NCBI GenBank assembly: GCA_947447225.1
Contig: CANFJV010000005.1
Location: 1-47,476 of the forward strand
Length of the DNA stretch: 47,476 nucleotides
From: Acidimicrobiaceae bacterium
Lineage (GTDB): Bacteria; Actinomycetota; Acidimicrobiia; Acidimicrobiales; RAAP-2
Direction of reading: 5' to 3'
Part shown: positions 11,733 to 20,148 of the stretch, piece after piece
Layout of the letters: every line of letters starts with the position of its first letter
Position numbering within the stretch: the first letter of the stretch is position 1
Position numbers and translations under genes: made by a program
Notes under the pieces: model-generated
What the model was told of the DNA's origin: nothing
The model's input: the letters and a program-made list of their open reading frames with translations, nothing else
Databases searched by the model: none

Positions 11733-14700
11733 TCAACGCGGCCCGCAGTACTGGGTTGGCAGGATGAATTGCAAGGTGTTGTAGGTGCCGTTCCATGGGG
11801 CCTTTGAGAACATCGATACTTGATTTGCGTAGTCACCAGCACGACCCCACTCTGATGGGCAGAAGTCATTGAACGAGATGATGCCGGCAATATTTGGCCC
11901 CGAGACAATCTTTTTTGGTGGCGTCGGCGGTGCCGTGATGGTCAATTTGCCTTGCTGGCTCACGGTGTAGTGCACACCCCAGGCGACCGCCAAGAACGCG
12001 GGGAGTGCAAGTTTGGCGATGTTGTAGGTGAGATATTCGGCCTGGTCCATGTAGACACCGACGTGGGTGCCGGGATTGAGTTGGTGAAGCCCATCGGCCC
12101 AACCACTGAGCGCCGAGGCCCACTTCGCTGAGCTCACCGCCCCTGGGGGGCCATCAAGGCCGGAGTGGTTGTCGGGATACCCTTCGGGGTCATAGATCAC
12201 GAAGTTGGGTTGAAGATTGAGCCCTTGTTTTGGATACGACGCCAAAATGGTGCCAACCGCTCGACCGGCGAGCAGGCTTGCTTGGTAGTACGCCTGCGGT
12301 GGATTTGCCGCACCGGCACCCGATGGCAAGACACTCAGTTGCGCGGTGTTCGCACTTGGCGTTCCCGAGGTGGCGAGACCTTGTTCGGTGCCGCTTGAAT
12401 CGGTGAAACCACCAACACCACGACACAGGCTTGGCGAAACACAGGCAATCGCCGATAGCACTGCTTCAGGACTTCGAGCCGCACCAGCAGGCAAGTTGGA
12501 AAAGGCAGCCTTGCCAACAATGCCACCCACAATGGCGAGCAGCACGGGTCGCTTGTGGAGCGCCCCATCAATCGCGCTGCCCGCTGCGATGCAGGTTGCC
12601 GTCGGGCAACTGACCGAGTTGAGGACAAACGACGGGTTTGACGCTGCAGCAACTGGGGCGGAAATGGCAGACGTGGCGCCAGCAATGCCACCACTGACAA
12701 CGGTCACCGTGGCAAGCGATTTTCCAGTTGCCATGGTGGTGGTGCCAACCACCGTGCAAGTGCTTGGCCCGCAAGAAATGGCCGTGTAGGTCGCCTGAGG
12801 ATTACTTGCCGCTCCTGGCGCCAAGGTGCCGGCGGCGACCGAAATGGCAACGTCGGCGGCGATGGACCCAAGCCACGGTCGAGTGCGACCAGCAGTATCG
12901 ACAAATGAACCAACGCCGAGGCAGCTTTGCCCGCTCGTGCACGTGATCGACGTTGGGGTCATTCGCGAGTTAACCGATGCACCCGGCGGGGTCGCAAGCA
13001 CGCGTGCGGTGCTTGGCGTTCCTGCTCTTGTTGCCACCGCAATGCCAACCGTGCGACCAGCGACATCCATCTGCGTGCCAAGGCCAACACACACGCTGGC
13101 CGAAGTGCATCGCAGCGCGGTCAGTGTTGCTTGTGGGTTGCTCGCCGCAGAAGTCGGCACGGCGACAAACCGGGCGGAACTGGTTGCGCCGGAAATGGTC
13201 GTCCATGTTGGAAGGCGCTTTCCCGTTGCATCAAGGGCGCTGCCAACAATGGTGCAGATGGTTGGTTGTTGACAAGAAATCGCACCAATTTGTGCCTTTG
13301 GATCCGCGGCAGAACCGGTGGGGATGGGTAACCACGTGCCCACACCTTTTCCATCGGCAGTACTCGTCACCATGACCGGCATCGACGATCCATCAAATTC
13401 GGTCGCAACTCCGGCGGCAACACAGGTGGTCGGGCACGAAATCGCTGACAGTTTGGCGGAGATCGGAGGACCAGAAACCGTCCAAAAGCTCAGCCATGTT
13501 GCCGGTCGACCACTTGCGGCGATGGCTTTGCCAGTGGCCAAGTCCTGGCCACTGTTGGCGAGTCCGGTGTAGGGAGCGCCAACGGTCCCAAGTGCTCCGG
13601 TGTCGCCAATTACTGGCCAGCCATCATTGAGCGCTCGAGGAAGTGACCCTTGCGGGATGGCATAGAGGCCCGTGCCGGAAGTTGAGGTGAACATGGCGCC
13701 ACTGGCAAAGACAAGGAACTGTCCTCCAACTGCCGCGGCACTGAGCGATGTGGACGACGGAGAAAACACGGCGGATGCTTTCACATCAAGTGCTCGCCAC
13801 GATGGCGTGCCTTGACCCACCACCGTGTCGAAACTGAGATAGTCCGAGTAGTCACTTCGGGCGAGGACTTCCACTTTCGTGCCGTCGCTGGCTAAGACGG
13901 GACGACCAGTCACGGTGGAGCCGCCACTTGCCGAGGTTGACAAGTCCGTCGTTGTCCACAGCGAGGACACGGTGTTGATGGGACCAGAAAGTGCAACCAG
14001 ATGATGGTTGGCGAGCGTCACCACAATCGTGGTCATACCCGGCGTGCAGGCAATGACGGGACCGCCCGTCACGAGACTCGGTACGGGAAAATTCCGACTG
14101 CTCCAGAATCGCAAGGTGGCATTGTCATCAGCGAATTCGACCACGTTGCCAAGCACCGAGACCCCAGCAACATGGTGTTGGGCTGACGTCTGCTCACTGT
14201 CGACAACTGGATCCGTCACGATGTTGGGCCCGCCAGATAGTGCGGTCACGTCAACGGCTTGCCAAGGTTTGGTCGCACTCGCGGTGTCGACAAAGGAGAT
14301 GACATGGCCCGCGCTCGTGCGGCTGAAGACCGAGGTACCAGTGTCGGTGATGCTGATCGATGGCCGACCAATGGTGGCTGGGCCACTTGACAGTGCAGTC
14401 AGGTCATAGCGCTGCCAAGCGGTTCGCCCACTGAATTGCTCAACGCTGAGCATGAGGTGGCCATTTGTTGCTCTCGTCACGAGCACCGGCACGCCGGATT
14501 GGTCGACGGCAATTGCCGGTGTGACGGTTGAGGTGAGGCCAATGGACTGGGTCAAGTTGGTTGAGGACCAGTTGGTTGAACTTGCCGAAGGAGCTGTTAT
14601 CACCACCACTTGACTTGACTCAGTGAGTCCAGCAGCAAGCACGGAGCCACCGGCATCGACGATTGCTGGGGGTTCTTTGAAATTGGTTAAGGCCGCACTT

Positions 14701-14918
14701 GCGGTCACGTCAACGGTGGCCCAATTCGCGGTTGATCCAATCGGGGCATGAAACGCCCACAGGTGTGACGGCGGAGTTGCTGGTGCACTAATTGCGCCAG
14801 CAGGCGTGGCCTCATCGGCGCTGCGGGCCGCAAACAACGCCGACGCGACAATGACCCCTGCCAGAACCGCGCGGCGAAGTTGTCTACCTCGCCGTGGTCG
14901 ACCCGTCATGTTCGCCAT
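11733..14918 (-). CDS. Giant secreted protein: two seven-copy repeat arrays plus C-terminal hydrolase-like domain
   Basis: Exported protein of 1061 residues, not assigned to a named family. The N-terminus has a basic stretch and a hydrophobic segment ending near residue 45 (signal peptide or anchor). Residues about 52-422 hold seven copies of a ~51-residue unit anchored by W-x3-D-[LV]-[TS] (Trp at 66, 117, 168, 219, 272, 321, 374), which predicts a seven-bladed propeller. Residues about 488-855 hold seven copies of a 55-residue unit with a C-x(3-5)-C pair (first Cys at 495, 549, 604, 660, 716, 771, 826). The last 190 residues contain NFVIYDPEGYPD, HVGVYMDQAEY and GIISFNDFCPSEW, strand-like segments with acidic ends reminiscent of a TIM-barrel glycosidase (GH25-like at best). 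ATG at 14918 is chosen because TAGGGT lies 7 nt upstream; a GTG at 14927 is the alternative. Confidence 0.75.
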   Translation of the reverse strand: MANMTGRPRRGRQLRRAVLAGVIVASALFAARSADEATPAGAISAPATPPSHLWAFHAPIGSTANWATVDVTASAALTNFKEPPAIVDAGGSVLAAGLTESSQVVVITAPSASSTNWSSTNLTQSIGLTSTVTPAIAVDQSGVPVLVTRATNGHLMLSVEQFSGRTAWQRYDLTALSSGPATIGRPSISITDTGTSVFSRTSAGHVISFVDTASATKPWQAVDVTALSGGPNIVTDPVVDSEQTSAQHHVAGVSVLGNVVEFADDNATLRFWSSRNFPVPSLVTGGPVIACTPGMTTIVVTLANHHLVALSGPINTVSSLWTTTDLSTSASGGSTVTGRPVLASDGTKVEVLARSDYSDYLSFDTVVGQGTPSWRALDVKASAVFSPSSTSLSAAAVGGQFLVFASGAMFTSTSGTGLYAIPQGSLPRALNDGWPVIGDTGALGTVGAPYTGLANSGQDLATGKAIAASGRPATWLSFWTVSGPPISAKLSAISCPTTCVAAGVATEFDGSSMPVMVTSTADGKGVGTWLPIPTGSAADPKAQIGAISCQQPTICTIVGSALDATGKRLPTWTTISGATSSARFVAVPTSAASNPQATLTALRCTSASVCVGLGTQMDVAGRTVGIAVATRAGTPSTARVLATPPGASVNSRMTPTSITCTSGQSCLGVGSFVDTAGRTRPWLGSIAADVAISVAAGTLAPGAASNPQATYTAISCGPSTCTVVGTTTMATGKSLATVTVVSGGIAGATSAISAPVAAASNPSFVLNSVSCPTATCIAAGSAIDGALHKRPVLLAIVGGIVGKAAFSNLPAGAARSPEAVLSAIACVSPSLCRGVGGFTDSSGTEQGLATSGTPSANTAQLSVLPSGAGAANPPQAYYQASLLAGRAVGTILASYPKQGLNLQPNFVIYDPEGYPDNHSGLDGPPGAVSSAKWASALSGWADGLHQLNPGTHVGVYMDQAEYLTYNIAKLALPAFLAVAWGVHYTVSQQGKLTITAPPTPPKKIVSGPNIAGIISFNDFCPSEWGRAGDYANQVSMFSKAPWNGTYNTLQFILPTQYCGPR
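12354..13457 (-). repeat. Seven tandem 55-codon repeats with Cys pairs
   Basis: Coding repeat inside the secreted protein. Each unit is about 165 bp and shows a linker like AASNPQA, a strand like TLTALRC, a second Cys 3-5 residues on, a V-G-[ST] turn and a D-x-x-G-[KR] loop. First-Cys spacings are 54, 55, 56, 56, 55 and 55 residues. Each pair probably forms a disulfide, which suits an extracellular propeller or solenoid. Confidence 0.75.
13653..14765 (-). repeat. Seven ~51-codon propeller-like repeats, copy 1 of 3 in the locus
   Basis: Anchors include NWATVDVTA, NWSSTNLTQ, AWQRYDLTA, PWQAVDVTA, FWSSRNFPV, LWTTTDLST and SWRALDVKA, each followed 12-16 residues later by a P-[VLAS]-[ILV] strand. 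The same anchor occurs in the two neighbouring secreted proteins. Seven copies at steady spacing is the classic sign of a beta-propeller. Confidence 0.7.
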
Positions 14919-14925
14919 TTTGTTC

Positions 14926-14931
14926 ACCCTA
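14926..14931 (-). promoter_or_regulatory. -10 box (TAGGGT) of a leaderless transcript
   Basis: TAGGGT followed by GAACAAA (7 nt) and the ATG at 14918. It lies inside the 40-bp gap after the S53 peptidase stop, so the downstream secreted protein may have its own promoter as well as read-through. Confidence 0.4.
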
Positions 14932-14958
14932 GTAACGGCCCTTCACGGAGCGGAGTCG

Positions 14959-17900
14959 TCACAGAGCCACTTGCGTCGTGGCAAGCGTTACGTGGCCAGC
15001 TGCGGTTACCCAACTGAGCACCGTCGACGACGTGGTCGCTGATCCACGAAGCATGGTGCCAACACCGCTTAGGCCCCAAGCAGCGGTTGCGTCATAGGCA
15101 TTCCATCTAGCACTTGGACCGCTTTGCGAGAGCACGATGAGGTGATTGAGTTTTGACCAGCCAACAACGAGCAGTCGCGCTTGGCTCGACACCACGACTG
15201 GACTGGCAAGAATCGCGCTTGATCGTGCTGCGGCACTGACGTCGGTTGCTTCCCAGGCGCCACTGGTCGGCACCAAGTTGGCAATCCATGCGTGACCACT
15301 GGTGGTCGATACTGCCACTGCGCTGCCAAGTGGCCCAACGGTGACCGAGATTGGGTTGGTCGAGATGGCGCCAAGGGTTGTTGACGCTGACACATTGGTC
15401 TGTGCGGTGACGACGGCTCCCGACGTTGACACGACGAAGAGTTCACCAGCGCTTGACCGAACGCCAAGAAGAAGTCCACTGGCACTCCCCGCACATGCCG
15501 GCGCACTGGAAATGGTGAGTCCCGTGAGCGCGGTGAGATCGGTGGTGGAAAACGCGGTTGCAAGTGGTGACGTTGCCGTGAAGATCACCAGTCGGCCACT
15601 CGTCAGGCGAATCGCTCCACTTGCAACAAAGGTCGGCGATGCACCGACACTTGAGAGACAAAGTGCTCCAGCGGTTGCGCCGGTGAGACCTGCCGATTTG
15701 GTGAGATCAGTGATGGTGAACTTGGTCTTTGTGCTGGTTCCTCGAGCCACGAGCACATGGCCGGTGGTCGAGACGCCTGCGACAATGAAGACCGCGCCGA
15801 CTTTGGTGAACTGCACCGGTCCGGTGAACACACCGGAGGTCTTTGGCAGCGAGGTAAAGCTGAGGGTTGCAGCACTCAGCGACGGTGCGGTGCCGGTGGC
15901 AAGAATCACTTTGCTCGCAACACTCGCGAGTTGCGTCGTTGAAGGTGTTGCGGCAAGGAGGCCTCCAAGGGTTGCCTTGCCCGTAAGGGCCCGGTTGGCA
16001 GCCGTTAGGTCTTTGGTGGTCCATGCAGCTGCCCCGGTAAGGGTGGCCATGGGTGCAGCGACCACCGTCCAGCGCTGTGCGCTCGAGGTGACCGACACAC
16101 TCGATGGAACCTTGGACGTGGCATTGAGTGCTGCGAGAGCTCCAACACTGAGCAGCGACCCAGCGGGAAGGGGACTTGCGACGGTGTAGGTCATCTGGTT
16201 GATCGTGGTCGATGACGATGAGGTGCCAAACGACTTCCAGGTGAGCGTTGACACGTCACCGTTTGCGCTGGCGACGAGAGACGCAGGGTTTGAGGGCAAG
16301 GTCATGCCGCGTGGCCACGTGATCGTCAGCGTGTCACCAGTCGCGAGATCGGCAGAAGACAACAAGGTCACTCCAACATTGGTTGGTCGACCAATCAGGG
16401 TGGACGATGACTTGGCGGATGCTGCTTCGGCGCACAAACTGTCGAGCGCACCAGCAAGTGGGGTTCCGAGCCCACTGGCCAAGTCATAGCCAGTCGTGGC
16501 ATTAAAGACCGTGCCGGTTCCAACACTTGAGGACCCTGCGGTCACGTCAGCAAAGTTCGATGGCGAGGCAAGTGCGGAGCGATAGAGGGTGGGATTGAGA
16601 AAACCAACGGTCTTTCCGCACGAAGACTCCGCCAAGGCAACAATGGCGGCGAGGAGTGGTGAGGCAGCCGAGGTTCCTCCGACCGGGAACCAGCCGCCTT
16701 CGTCGGACTGGTAGATAAGTACCCCTGAGCGTGGGTCGCCATTGAGCGACACATCAGGAACCATGCGTTGCGTTGACGTGTTCACTCGAGCGTCAGTGCT
16801 TGTGACAACCTGCCACGCAGGCCGTGGCCACACACTCGACAGACCGCCACCTGATCCGCCACCACCGAGTGACCCACGCCCCCAAGCGCTTTGGACTAGC
16901 GGGGTAAACGAGGTAGTTCTGGTGGCACCGACACCGGTGACATAGGGCTGACTCGCCGGGTCATCGACCGCATCGGCCACGTCGGTTGGATACGAACCAT
17001 TGCCGGCGCAATCTGCTGGACCATTGTCGCCACTCGCGGCGATAAAGGTCTGACCTTGGGCCGCCATTTGCTTGAACAGCCCGTTTTCAAAGTTCACGCC
17101 ACCGGGATCAGGATTGTCGGATTCACACAGTCCCCACGACGTCGTGATCACTTGGGCGAGATCATCAGCGGCGATTCTGGCTAACAGATCATTCGGCGCA
17201 CTTGGGTTCGCAGCGGTCGAGTTGGGTGCTTGGTAGACGAGCAGTTGTGCGCCGGGGGCGACAGAGAGCACATGGTCAATGTCAAGGGTTGGTTCGGTTG
17301 CCTCTGACGGGGCCGAGGGGCTGTAGGCCGGTGGGCCACCGTCAACATTGATGTTCACGATGTTCGGCGTGATGCCGTAGCAGCGGGCGTAGGACGCAAT
17401 ATCGGCCGATTTGTAGCGAGCTAATTCGTAGATGCCAACGGTTACGCCTTGGCCCGTCGTGCCGGCGCTGTAGTAGCGGTCAAGTCCATAGGCACTCCCG
17501 AGTTGTGTGGTCGTGATGCCGTAGCCACTTGTGGCGAGATCAGTAGCAGTTGGACACGTCGGGATTGCAGCTGCGGCTCGGCGAACGGTGGTCACTGACG
17601 GCGACAAGGTGTTAAACGAACCAAGTCCTGAGATTCCAGAGATGAGTGGGCGAAGTGACGAATCAATTCGTGGTGCCGACGTCACGGAAAAGTGGTGCTC
17701 ACCATTTCTGGTGGTGAAGTTCGCCATCTCGGTATGGAAGTACGCACTGATGGTCTTTGCACTCGCCGCAACTTTCAACAGTTGACGTGCGCCATGGAGC
17801 GGCTCGACCGTAAAGCCGGCTGCTTCCAAGCTCTTGGTCAGTGGCGCAAGCGAGGCCGCGCTTGGGCCAAATCGCTTGGCGTAGTCGCCTGGCTTCAAAA

Positions 17901-18180
17901 ACGCTCGATACGTCGGACTTCCCGGTGTTGACACGCCGGCCACGAACGCATCAAAGGCCTGCGGGTGCCGAGGAGCGAGGCCAATGGTCAAGGTAAAGCG
18001 GCGAGAAGCCTTGACTGCCGAGATGCGCTTGGCGTCGGAGGGGAGCTGTGGCGTTGGGGAGAGTCGAACGAGATGTGGACGTTGTGACGAGGTCGCCGCA
18101 CCGGCGACGTCAATCGTCGCCATTGACATCGAAAGCGACGCCGCAAGCAGCAACGGAGTCCACCGAAGGTTTCTCGCCAT
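14959..18180 (-). CDS. Secreted S53 (sedolisin/kumamolisin) serine-carboxyl peptidase with C-terminal propeller-like repeats
   Basis: Extracellular endopeptidase of 1073 residues. Order: signal peptide (1-29, cut after GAA), pro-kumamolisin activation domain (about 38-195, with FTLTIGLAP and SPTYRAFLKPGDY), and the peptidase domain (about 205-585). The catalytic set is complete: Glu296 and Asp300 in EPTLD, oxyanion Asp385 in SGDNG, and Ser504 in GGTSAASP; the calcium-site region GYDLASGLGTP follows near 564-573. A linker domain (590-710) leads to seven ~50-residue units (anchors near 720, 775, 821, 877, 925, 976, 1026; for example AAWTTKDLT, AFSTTDLTA, AWEATDVSA) like those of both neighbours. 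The start lacks a Shine-Dalgarno sequence; TAGCCT lies exactly 6 nt before the ATG. Family members usually act at acid pH. Confidence 0.95.
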   Translation of the reverse strand: MARNLRWTPLLLAASLSMSMATIDVAGAATSSQRPHLVRLSPTPQLPSDAKRISAVKASRRFTLTIGLAPRHPQAFDAFVAGVSTPGSPTYRAFLKPGDYAKRFGPSAASLAPLTKSLEAAGFTVEPLHGARQLLKVAASAKTISAYFHTEMANFTTRNGEHHFSVTSAPRIDSSLRPLISGISGLGSFNTLSPSVTTVRRAAAAIPTCPTATDLATSGYGITTTQLGSAYGLDRYYSAGTTGQGVTVGIYELARYKSADIASYARCYGITPNIVNINVDGGPPAYSPSAPSEATEPTLDIDHVLSVAPGAQLLVYQAPNSTAANPSAPNDLLARIAADDLAQVITTSWGLCESDNPDPGGVNFENGLFKQMAAQGQTFIAASGDNGPADCAGNGSYPTDVADAVDDPASQPYVTGVGATRTTSFTPLVQSAWGRGSLGGGGSGGGLSSVWPRPAWQVVTSTDARVNTSTQRMVPDVSLNGDPRSGVLIYQSDEGGWFPVGGTSAASPLLAAIVALAESSCGKTVGFLNPTLYRSALASPSNFADVTAGSSSVGTGTVFNATTGYDLASGLGTPLAGALDSLCAEAASAKSSSTLIGRPTNVGVTLLSSADLATGDTLTITWPRGMTLPSNPASLVASANGDVSTLTWKSFGTSSSSTTINQMTYTVASPLPAGSLLSVGALAALNATSKVPSSVSVTSSAQRWTVVAAPMATLTGAAAWTTKDLTAANRALTGKATLGGLLAATPSTTQLASVASKVILATGTAPSLSAATLSFTSLPKTSGVFTGPVQFTKVGAVFIVAGVSTTGHVLVARGTSTKTKFTITDLTKSAGLTGATAGALCLSSVGASPTFVASGAIRLTSGRLVIFTATSPLATAFSTTDLTALTGLTISSAPACAGSASGLLLGVRSSAGELFVVSTSGAVVTAQTNVSASTTLGAISTNPISVTVGPLGSAVAVSTTSGHAWIANLVPTSGAWEATDVSAAARSSAILASPVVVSSQARLLVVGWSKLNHLIVLSQSGPSARWNAYDATAAWGLSGVGTMLRGSATTSSTVLSWVTAAGHVTLATTQVAL
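14962..16083 (-). repeat. Seven ~50-codon propeller-like repeats, copy 2 of 3 in the locus
   Basis: C-terminal third of the S53 peptidase gene. Anchor motifs of the form [WF]-x3-D-[LV]-[TS]-A recur at spacings of 46-56 residues. One unit (near residue 775) and one near 925 have lost the Asp, so the array is more divergent than in the neighbouring protein. Confidence 0.6.
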
Positions 18181-18186
18181 AGTCAG

Positions 18187-18192
18187 AGGCTA
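18187..18192 (-). promoter_or_regulatory. -10 box (TAGCCT) of a leaderless transcript for the S53 peptidase
   Basis: Minus-strand TAGCCT, then CTGACT (6 nt), then ATG at 18180. The same hexamer at the same distance precedes the metallophosphoesterase gene at 42549. No -35 consensus is seen. The 141-bp gap to 18322 holds this promoter and, presumably, the divergent one for the CHAP gene. Confidence 0.5.
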
Positions 18193-18321
18193 GGAGAAAA
18201 CTGCTCGACCTCTTTGGTGCCGAGGATTCTGTCTCAGCCATGACTCAGCGAGGCTGCACTGGTAGCGTTACGTCTGGGCGGAGCGTGACGCACCTACGCA
18301 AGGTGACCTCAGGAGAAGAGG

Positions 18322-20148
18322 GTGGAGCGCTCAAGAAGTAGAAGGTCCGCACCATTTGGTCGGATCCTGATGAGTGCAGGAGTCTTGGCCGGCCTCGTTG
18401 CCGGATTTACCGAGCGCGCCTCCGCCGTTGCTCCGAGAGCCACGCCACTTGCCGACGTGGTCGTGTTCACCCCGTCAACCTTGCCGCCAGTTGGCACCAC
18501 GATTGCGACCAATCTCACCCAGTCGTCGGTGTTTCCCGCCGGGTCGACGTCGATGGTGCTTCGCCAAGTCGGGACGAACTTGGTCGTTGCCGCGGTTTCT
18601 CCAACGGGGGCGATTCTCACGGCAAGCGATCCACAACTCGGTGCGCAGCCAAAACCAGCGGCTACGCCGAGTGGACTTGCGTCACTTGCCAATGTCACTG
18701 GACTTTCGAATCTGGTGAGCAATGGGGCAGCAGGAGTTGCCGTTGCAGTGCGCAGTGCAAGCGGAGCGGTGTCACTCGCCACCGCACCTTCAGCAGGCCA
18801 AAGCGGATGGCAATACACCGTGTTGACCTCGGTGGCTGGTGGTCCTGGAATCACTGGAACTCCAGAACTCGGCCGCAGTGCTGATGGACGCTATGAGATT
18901 TTCGGCACCTCTGGCGCCGGCCATGTCATTGAGTGGACGAACGACGGACGCTTTGGTCGAACCTGGAACGCCTATGACCTCTCTGCAATCACCGGCATCG
19001 GGCCGGTGTCGATGACGCCGCAGCTTGCCGCCGCGAGTAGCGATGGCGAGATCCAAGGCGTGTTGGTTGAAACCGCCACGCGGCAGCTCATTTTGCTCAT
19101 TGATGACAACTCGACCTACACCTTGTGGCGTCAAATCCCCTTGACACTTCCCGCTGGTGTGGTGCCCGCTGGTGCTCCGCAAATGGTGACCTCAGGAACT
19201 GGGCTCATGCTCGGCGTGACGACCACCACCGGAGCACTTGTTGCCACGGCTCCGAGCGTGCTTGGTCCATGGGTCTTTACGGATTTGGCTCCGGCACTGA
19301 CTAAGGCAAAGCAACTCGTCGCGCCAAATTCTGGGATTGCGCTGTCGCCAACGACTGCCTACATGCGTTCAACCGCAGGGGACCTGTTGTCGTTGTCGAA
19401 CTTCGCTTCAGCAACGACGGTGACGGTGTCGAATGTGAGCGCTGCCGTTGGTGTTGGAGAGCGCATTTCGAGTGATCCGGTGTTGTCGATGACCTCGAAC
19501 GGACCAGCACTTGTGGCCGCTGATGGCGGGTCAATTCCACTGGTCGCGAAGATCGTGTCGCTGGCAAGAAGCCTCGACCAAAATCATGCTGCGGTGGTTG
19601 AGACGCCACTCAATACCAACTGCAACCCCTATTCGGGCTATTTCGGCCGGGGCAGCACCTGGGCCTGCCCAAAGGGCATGGGAGCAGAAGAGTGGTGCTC
19701 GGACTTTGCCAACTGGGTATGGGCACGATCTGGCGCACAGGTTGCAGGGATCACTGGTTATAGCTACACCTTTGTCACCGCCGGTATGCGTCTTGGCACC
19801 TTTAAACCTGGTGCGACCAATAATCCAAAGCCTGGCGATGCCGTGGTGTGGGGTGTGGCTGCCACCGGCGTTGGCAACCATGTAGGTCTCGTTGTTGCGG
19901 TCAAGGGCAATCTCATTGATGTGGTCGCTGGAAATGCCGGTCCGGTCACGCCACAGGGCTACAACGTGAAGGTGTGGGAATCAGGCTTCTTCGACCCAGC
20001 TACCAGTCACGACACGCCAACCGACGGCATTGTTGGCTACGTCACCCCAATTGCCATTGGCCAAGGTGCTCGCATTGCTCCGCCAATCGCGCAGCCGGTA
20101 TCTGCCAGTGAGGCAGCCAAGATTGCCGCCCAAGACCACGGTCGTTAA
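18322..20148 (+). CDS. Secreted CHAP-domain cell-wall hydrolase with propeller-like N-terminal region
   Basis: Probable peptidoglycan amidase or endopeptidase of 608 residues. A signal peptide (about 1-37, hydrophobic LMSAGVLAGLVAGF core) leads to about seven propeller-like units (anchors near 60, 118, 163, 215, 269, 317, 366; the clearest are TWNAYDLSAITG and PWVFTDLAP), and a C-terminal CHAP domain (about 430-580). The catalytic Cys459 sits in AEEWCSDFANWVW, His520 in GNHVGLV and the third polar residue in VAGNAG. GTG at 18322 has AGGAG 6 nt upstream, unlike its leaderless neighbour. It diverges from the S53 peptidase gene and shares its repeat type, so the three genes form one locus. Substrate could be the cell's own wall or other bacteria; sequence alone does not tell. 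Confidence 0.9.
   Translation: MERSRSRRSAPFGRILMSAGVLAGLVAGFTERASAVAPRATPLADVVVFTPSTLPPVGTTIATNLTQSSVFPAGSTSMVLRQVGTNLVVAAVSPTGAILTASDPQLGAQPKPAATPSGLASLANVTGLSNLVSNGAAGVAVAVRSASGAVSLATAPSAGQSGWQYTVLTSVAGGPGITGTPELGRSADGRYEIFGTSGAGHVIEWTNDGRFGRTWNAYDLSAITGIGPVSMTPQLAAASSDGEIQGVLVETATRQLILLIDDNSTYTLWRQIPLTLPAGVVPAGAPQMVTSGTGLMLGVTTTTGALVATAPSVLGPWVFTDLAPALTKAKQLVAPNSGIALSPTTAYMRSTAGDLLSLSNFASATTVTVSNVSAAVGVGERISSDPVLSMTSNGPALVAADGGSIPLVAKIVSLARSLDQNHAAVVETPLNTNCNPYSGYFGRGSTWACPKGMGAEEWCSDFANWVWARSGAQVAGITGYSYTFVTAGMRLGTFKPGATNNPKPGDAVVWGVAATGVGNHVGLVVAVKGNLIDVVAGNAGPVTPQGYNVKVWESGFFDPATSHDTPTDGIVGYVTPIAIGQGARIAPPIAQPVSASEAAKIAAQDHGR

What the first reader, a model, noticed from the sequence alone, without database searches (positions are those of the whole stretch)
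11733..20148. Three adjacent secreted proteins share a predicted seven-bladed propeller module with different effectors
The proteins at 11733-14918, 14959-18180 and 18322-20148 each carry about seven units of ~51 residues anchored by a [WF]-x3-D-[LV]-[TS] motif. In the first the Trp spacings are 51, 51, 51, 53, 49, 53. The module sits N-terminally in the first and third proteins and C-terminally in the S53 peptidase. The attached parts are a Cys-repeat array with a hydrolase-like end, a complete S53 peptidase and a CHAP wall hydrolase. I infer a shared targeting or binding domain that brings protein- and wall-degrading enzymes to the same surface: a dedicated lysis or scavenging locus. I know of no named system with this set.
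Basis: partly seen in the sequence, partly recalled or inferred. Interest (0 to 1): 0.78.

Follow-up and report, generated by a model that had tools for sequence, protein, structure and literature searches.

The report
Three enzymes sharing one sugar-binding propeller
In this acidimicrobial genome three neighbouring secreted enzymes (a protein cutter, a cell-wall cutter and a member of an unnamed enzyme-like family) carry the same lectin-like propeller, probably an address tag that brings them to one sugar-coated surface; relatives swap the tag for other sugar-binding modules, and in every genome where two of the partner enzymes could both be read they carry the same kind.

Summary
Proteins A (11733-14927 -), B (14959-18180 -) and C (18322-20148 +) each carry one homologous seven-repeat module (profile-profile E 9e-25, 1.5e-12, 1.8e-10; reversed and shuffled controls near 0.1-1). 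Models of A and C match Photorhabdus PLL/PHL seven-bladed lectins best (Z 25 and 24, above all other propellers), though the models are partly low-confidence. B is a complete S53 peptidase and C a complete CHAP hydrolase. A's 'hydrolase-like end' is half of a split domain: residues 418-490 plus 867-1064, interrupted by a seven-repeat Cys array; other genera have it uninterrupted. That domain has no Pfam, NCBIfam or PDB match and, among the Actinomycetota sampled, occurs only in this family; one distant relative is on an Alicyclobacillus plasmid. The locus occupies one fixed chromosomal slot in most genera. In relatives the propeller is replaced by B_lectin or CBM_4_9 modules; in all 17 genomes where both A- and C-type partners were readable, both carry the same class. 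So the module is very probably a carbohydrate-binding address tag. Whether the target is the cell's own envelope (favoured) or other cells is untested. New variant of a known kind, containing an unnamed catalytic-type domain.

The parts
11733..14927 (-). Protein A, 1064 aa, secreted-looking: lectin-like propeller + split unnamed catalytic-type domain + inserted Cys-repeat array
13698..14780 (-). A, propeller module (aa 50-410), seven repeats
13458..13676 (-). A, first half of the unnamed D-x-E domain (aa 418-490)
12330..13457 (-). A, Cys-repeat array (aa 491-866), seven C-x(3-5)-C repeats of about 55 aa, inserted in the domain; about four strands per repeat in a low-confidence model, so possibly a second propeller
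11736..12329 (-). A, second half of the unnamed domain (aa 867-1064), with invariant D913-x-E915
14959..18180 (-). Protein B, 1073 aa, S53 (sedolisin/kumamolisin) peptidase with C-terminal propeller
17614..18033 (-). B, pro-kumamolisin activation domain PF09286 (aa 50-189)
   Evidence: 4.8e-23
16426..17583 (-). B, S53 catalytic domain (aa 200-585); E296, D300, D385, S504
14962..16068 (-). B, propeller module (aa 705-1073)
18322..20148 (+). Protein C, 608 aa, propeller + CHAP
18469..19530 (+). C, propeller module (aa 50-403)
19531..20145 (+). C, CHAP domain region (aa 404-608; PF05257 at 457-538; C459, H520, N538)
18259..18321 (+). Conserved promoter-like box and leader of C: CTGGTAGCGTT, TGGGCGGAGC, hairpin, RBS-containing hairpin; box and hairpin recur upstream of the CHAP gene in other genera

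Best explanation
A set of secreted envelope hydrolases steered by one kind of lectin-like address tag. Each protein is exported (signal-like N-terminus seen by eye), its seven-bladed PLL-type propeller docks on a glycan-rich surface, and the attached enzyme works there: C cuts peptidoglycan peptides or amides (CHAP), B cuts protein at acid pH (S53), and A carries a D-x-E domain that most likely cuts or binds a wall or capsule glycan, with a second repeat array inserted into that domain. Shown: the homology of the three modules, the PLL-like fold of two of them, intact catalytic residues in B and C, the split domain, the fixed locus, and module replacement by other carbohydrate-binding folds in relatives. 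Inferred: secretion, carbohydrate binding, the activity of A, action on one common surface. Favoured but not shown: the surface is the cell's own envelope (remodelling, cell separation, turnover) rather than prey.
For: Homology of modules with controls. Foldseek: the 22 best hits for both models are all PLL/PHL lectins (A 1e-13 to 2e-11; C 2e-10 to 6e-8); VIA Z 25.1 (A) and 24.1 (C), related lectins BP39L/CV39L 20-22, other propellers below 21. Propellers of a related genus align with proteins of DUF346 type at 1.6e-9 against 0.5 reversed. Replacement: B_lectin stands in place of the propeller in the A- and C-type proteins of g14 and of G026 (Pfam 1.7e-22, 6.7e-11, 3.8e-9; mutual 1.7e-43) and in the A-type protein of G059; CBM_4_9 in G060 (2.5e-18). 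Matched class in all 17 genomes with both readable (14 propeller, 3 B_lectin; compiled). The propeller is also fused to a polysaccharide deacetylase in G055 (1.3e-21). Fixed slot between TypA-Lhr and DUF4395-TauE-Nudix in g1, g7, g10, g14, g18, g19. dN/dS about 0.03-0.09 for catalytic parts and 0.15-0.18 for propellers; neighbours 0.02-0.10.
Against: No binding or activity data. Models have mean pLDDT 43 and 47, from four-row alignments that share rows, so they are not fully independent; the A domain was not resolved. Pfam lectin hits of the propellers are below cut-off. Matched module class rests on few evolutionary switches. In g10 the S53 neighbour has no propeller and no CHAP partner was found, so the three enzymes need not act together. 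Self versus foreign target is undecided.
Confidence: 0.62

Rival explanations
1. A weapon or scavenging set: the propellers bind surface polysaccharide of other cells and the three enzymes lyse them for food or competition.
For: Pairing of a protease with a wall hydrolase; secreted-looking, no wall anchor seen by eye; modules diverge faster than catalytic parts; B_lectin folds occur in lectin-like bacteriocins (own knowledge).
Against: Usually one copy, same chromosomal slot across genera, kept in genomes of 1.4-2.3 Mb; purifying selection, no diversifying signal; no obvious immunity gene beside it.
Confidence: 0.3
2. The module is a structural or protein-protein propeller (stability, spacing, complex assembly), not a lectin.
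For: Pfam lectin families stay below cut-off; propellers serve many roles.
Against: Best fold matches are all sugar-binding lectins; replaced by B_lectin and CBM_4_9 in relatives.
Confidence: 0.15
3. Extracellular matrix or capsule turnover: the set trims the cell's exopolysaccharide-protein coat rather than peptidoglycan.
For: Propeller also fused to a polysaccharide deacetylase; A's domain has no known wall family.
Against: CHAP domains act on peptidoglycan in known cases (own knowledge).
Confidence: 0.2

Closest known systems
PLL/PHL seven-bladed lectins of Photorhabdus (PMC6943638, PMC5584973)
   Same: Seven repeats of about 50 residues each with a Trp-anchored motif; best fold matches of both modelled modules
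   Different: PLLs are stand-alone lectins; here the module is fused to hydrolases; 13-18% identity; DUF346 score below cut-off in the sequences tested
S53 sedolisin/kumamolisin peptidases
   Same: Pro-domain, E/D/D/S site, kumamolisin 2.2e-52
   Different: C-terminal lectin-like propeller, seen here only in g1 and g19
CHAP peptidoglycan hydrolases
   Same: PF05257 above cut-off; C/H/N invariant
   Different: N-terminal PLL-like propeller
GH25 / Rv2525c-like DUF1906 (PF08924) hydrolases
   Same: By eye, a D-x-E motif on a strand, later W and a Q-F/Y end
   Different: Profile comparison no better than reversed control; no Pfam or PDB match

Membership tests
PLL-type seven-bladed lectin | seven W-motif repeats of about 50 aa | tested here: met
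   A exact Trp spacing; lag 51-52 in A and C; B by profile
PLL-type seven-bladed lectin | fold closest to PLL/PHL among solved structures | tested here: met
   A and C, Z 25.1 and 24.1, 22 best Foldseek hits; B not modelled; models partly low-confidence
PLL-type seven-bladed lectin | DUF346 (PF03984) above curated cut-off | tested here: not met
   no hit in A, B or C; 7 of 11 related propellers hit, best E 4.1e-5, none shown over the cut-off
PLL-type seven-bladed lectin | carbohydrate binding | not testable with these tools
   needs a binding assay
S53 peptidase | pro-kumamolisin domain | tested here: met
   4.8e-23
S53 peptidase | catalytic Glu-Asp-Asp-Ser | tested here: met
   E296, D300, D385, S504 invariant in six orthologues
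CHAP hydrolase | PF05257 above cut-off and Cys/His/Asn | tested here: met
   32.7 bits vs 26; C459, H520, N538
GH25 / DUF1906 (domain of A) | profile similarity to PF08924 | tested here: inconclusive
   E 0.1, reversed control 0.08
GH25 / DUF1906 (domain of A) | beta/alpha barrel fold | tested here: inconclusive
   modelled at pLDDT about 25

The most novel reading that the evidence does not exclude
A's split domain founds a new glycan-active enzyme family whose catalytic domain carries an inserted second seven-bladed propeller, and the locus is a lectin-addressed enzyme set in which partner enzymes must share one glycan address, so that lineages exchange the whole lectin class in both partners together.
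Probability: 0.3. Interest if true: 0.75.

Novelty: new variant of a known kind. Interest (0 to 1): 0.55.

Why it matters
It offers a natural module-swap experiment: enzymes at one chromosomal address carry matching sugar-binding tags of unrelated folds. Testing binding on glycan arrays and on the producer's own wall would tell whether secreted wall enzymes are co-addressed, and would give a first function for a conserved domain that Pfam and NCBIfam do not describe.

Tried and rejected
GH25/DUF1906 assignment of A's domain: suggested by eye, not supported by hhalign, PDB or Pfam. Cys array: no Pfam hit; PDB hits are two dehydrogenases, best 0.0018, taken as chance. The PDB sequence search with the propeller profile gave AofleA at 0.017 and one chance hit. 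Viral contigs, phages and, for the propeller, plasmids: none. Known riboswitch in the leader of C: no Rfam match. A genome-wide regulon for that leader: 5 of 6 pattern hits lie upstream of this CHAP gene, while the reversed control pattern hits more often overall, so only the location is informative; the pattern's gap limit excluded the window itself. Papers on this set: none found with the terms used.

Full report
What is there. Three ORFs lie side by side: A (11733-14927, minus), B (14959-18180, minus) and C (18322-20148, plus). B and A run in the same direction with 31 bases between them; B and C diverge from a 141-base gap. The genome is a 2.04 Mb assembly in 162 contigs, 91% complete. The nearest named relative is a MAG labelled Acidimicrobiaceae bacterium Jr-7aug17-84, whose contig length equals that of G049:C20.

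The shared module. A's Trp anchors are spaced 51, 51, 51, 53, 49, 53. Strict motif counts in A and B are far above shuffles; C has one strict motif, but best periodicity at 52. Profiles built from six orthologues of each module align with each other at 9e-25 (A-C), 1.5e-12 (A-B) and 1.8e-10 (B-C), while reversed and column-shuffled controls give about 0.03-0.9; the Cys array, S53 and CHAP parts do not align with the modules. A search of the own genome finds the module only in these three genes.

Fold. AlphaFold2 models of A (mean pLDDT 43; mostly 55-84 over residues 150-340) and C (mean 47; mostly 55-85 over 130-370) were made from four-row alignments. For both, the 22 best Foldseek hits are Photorhabdus PLL/PHL lectins; VIA Z is 25.1 and 24.1, with generic propellers below 21. 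PLLs are seven-bladed, with sugar sites between blades (PMC6943638). Related propellers match DUF346 and Fungal_lectin weakly and align at 1.6e-9 with PLL-like proteins, one of which is above the DUF346 cut-off. B's module was not modelled.

The enzymes. B has a pro-kumamolisin domain and matches kumamolisin at 2.2e-52, with E296, D300, D385 and S504 invariant in six orthologues. S53 peptidases correlate with an acidophilic lifestyle (PMC6411800). C has a CHAP domain with C459, H520 and N538 invariant. A's hydrolase-like end is the second half of a domain whose first half is residues 418-490; the Cys array sits between. In most homologues from g7, g8, g10, g13, g14 and g18 the domain is uninterrupted or has shorter insertions. 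An alignment of 18 members has 35 invariant columns, including D-x-E-G, and no Pfam, NCBIfam or PDB match. In the family it is in 49 of 100 genomes and 8 of 21 genera; in class and phylum samples only in this family. A 240-aa Alicyclobacillus plasmid protein is 28.6% identical (1e-9). The fold is unresolved: the model is at pLDDT about 25 there, and comparison with DUF1906 equals its reversed control.

The Cys array has seven C-x(3-5)-C repeats, 54-56 apart, in A and seven in the two further orthologues listed; the low-confidence model shows about four strands per repeat, so a second propeller is possible, not shown. Similar arrays occur in separate proteins of other genera and of G041.

Locus. 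The slot between TypA/Lhr and DUF4395/TauE/Nudix holds A-B-C in g1 and g19, A-B in g10, and A-C in g7, g14 and g18; in G026 only A is there and the CHAP gene lies about 115 kb away; in g8 and g13 the genes are on other contigs where these neighbours were not seen. It is therefore an old, mostly vertically kept locus with gain and loss of members in place, on the genomes sampled.

Module replacement. In g14 (two genomes) and G026 both the A-type and C-type proteins carry B_lectin modules in place of the propeller; they match each other at up to 1.7e-43 and Pfam B_lectin above cut-off in G026 (both proteins) and in one g14 C-type protein; the g14 A-type proteins are assigned by similarity to their C-type partners (1e-12 to 1e-32). 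G059's A-type protein has B_lectin, G060's has CBM_4_9. Counting genomes where both are readable: 14 propeller-propeller (G000, G049, G041, G029, G010, G019, G046, G038, G007, G027, G064, G013, G018, G032), 3 B_lectin-B_lectin (G014, G030, G026), no mismatch. Trees put propeller and B_lectin members of g7/g14 in one supported clade for the A domain, and g7 propeller next to g14 B_lectin for CHAP, so the class changed within that clade; the number of switches is small. The propeller is also fused to a polysaccharide deacetylase in G055.

Selection. Between the window and its nearest relative dN/dS is 0.03-0.09 for catalytic parts, 0.15-0.18 for propellers, 0.02-0.10 for neighbours; dS is near saturation, so this is rough.

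Reading. The module is very probably a carbohydrate-binding address tag. Co-location of three enzymes on one surface follows from sharing it but is inferred. No result here separates them.

Noticed in passing
18259-18321: Promoter-like box and leader upstream of C (CTGGTAGCGTT, TGGGCGGAGC, hairpin, RBS in a hairpin loop): about 40 nt are identical in four genomes of the genus while the proteins differ widely; box and a hairpin with other stem sequences recur upstream of the CHAP gene in G010, G019, g7, g14 and g18 (L074, L075, L076, L077, L057, L058, L088). No Rfam match.
   Followed up: partly
L092:5971-6693: Alicyclobacillus sp. ALC3 plasmid (acid mine drainage) encodes a 240-aa stand-alone relative of A's unnamed domain, keeping D-x-E-G, near mobile elements.
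   Followed up: partly
L081:6858-8720: Same propeller fused to a polysaccharide deacetylase (PF01522 1.3e-21) in G055.
   Followed up: no
L115:6316-8772: PLL/DUF346-type propeller (above cut-off) fused to a GMC oxidoreductase in G064.
   Followed up: no
L071:5288-7228: Cys-repeat arrays like A's insertion also occur as separate secreted-looking proteins, here in the same genus (G041) and elsewhere in the family.
   Followed up: no
L055:7458-10490; L066:6232-8520; L065:1-2535: Some g10 genomes have extra insertions late in the unnamed domain, splitting it at another place than in the window.
   Followed up: no
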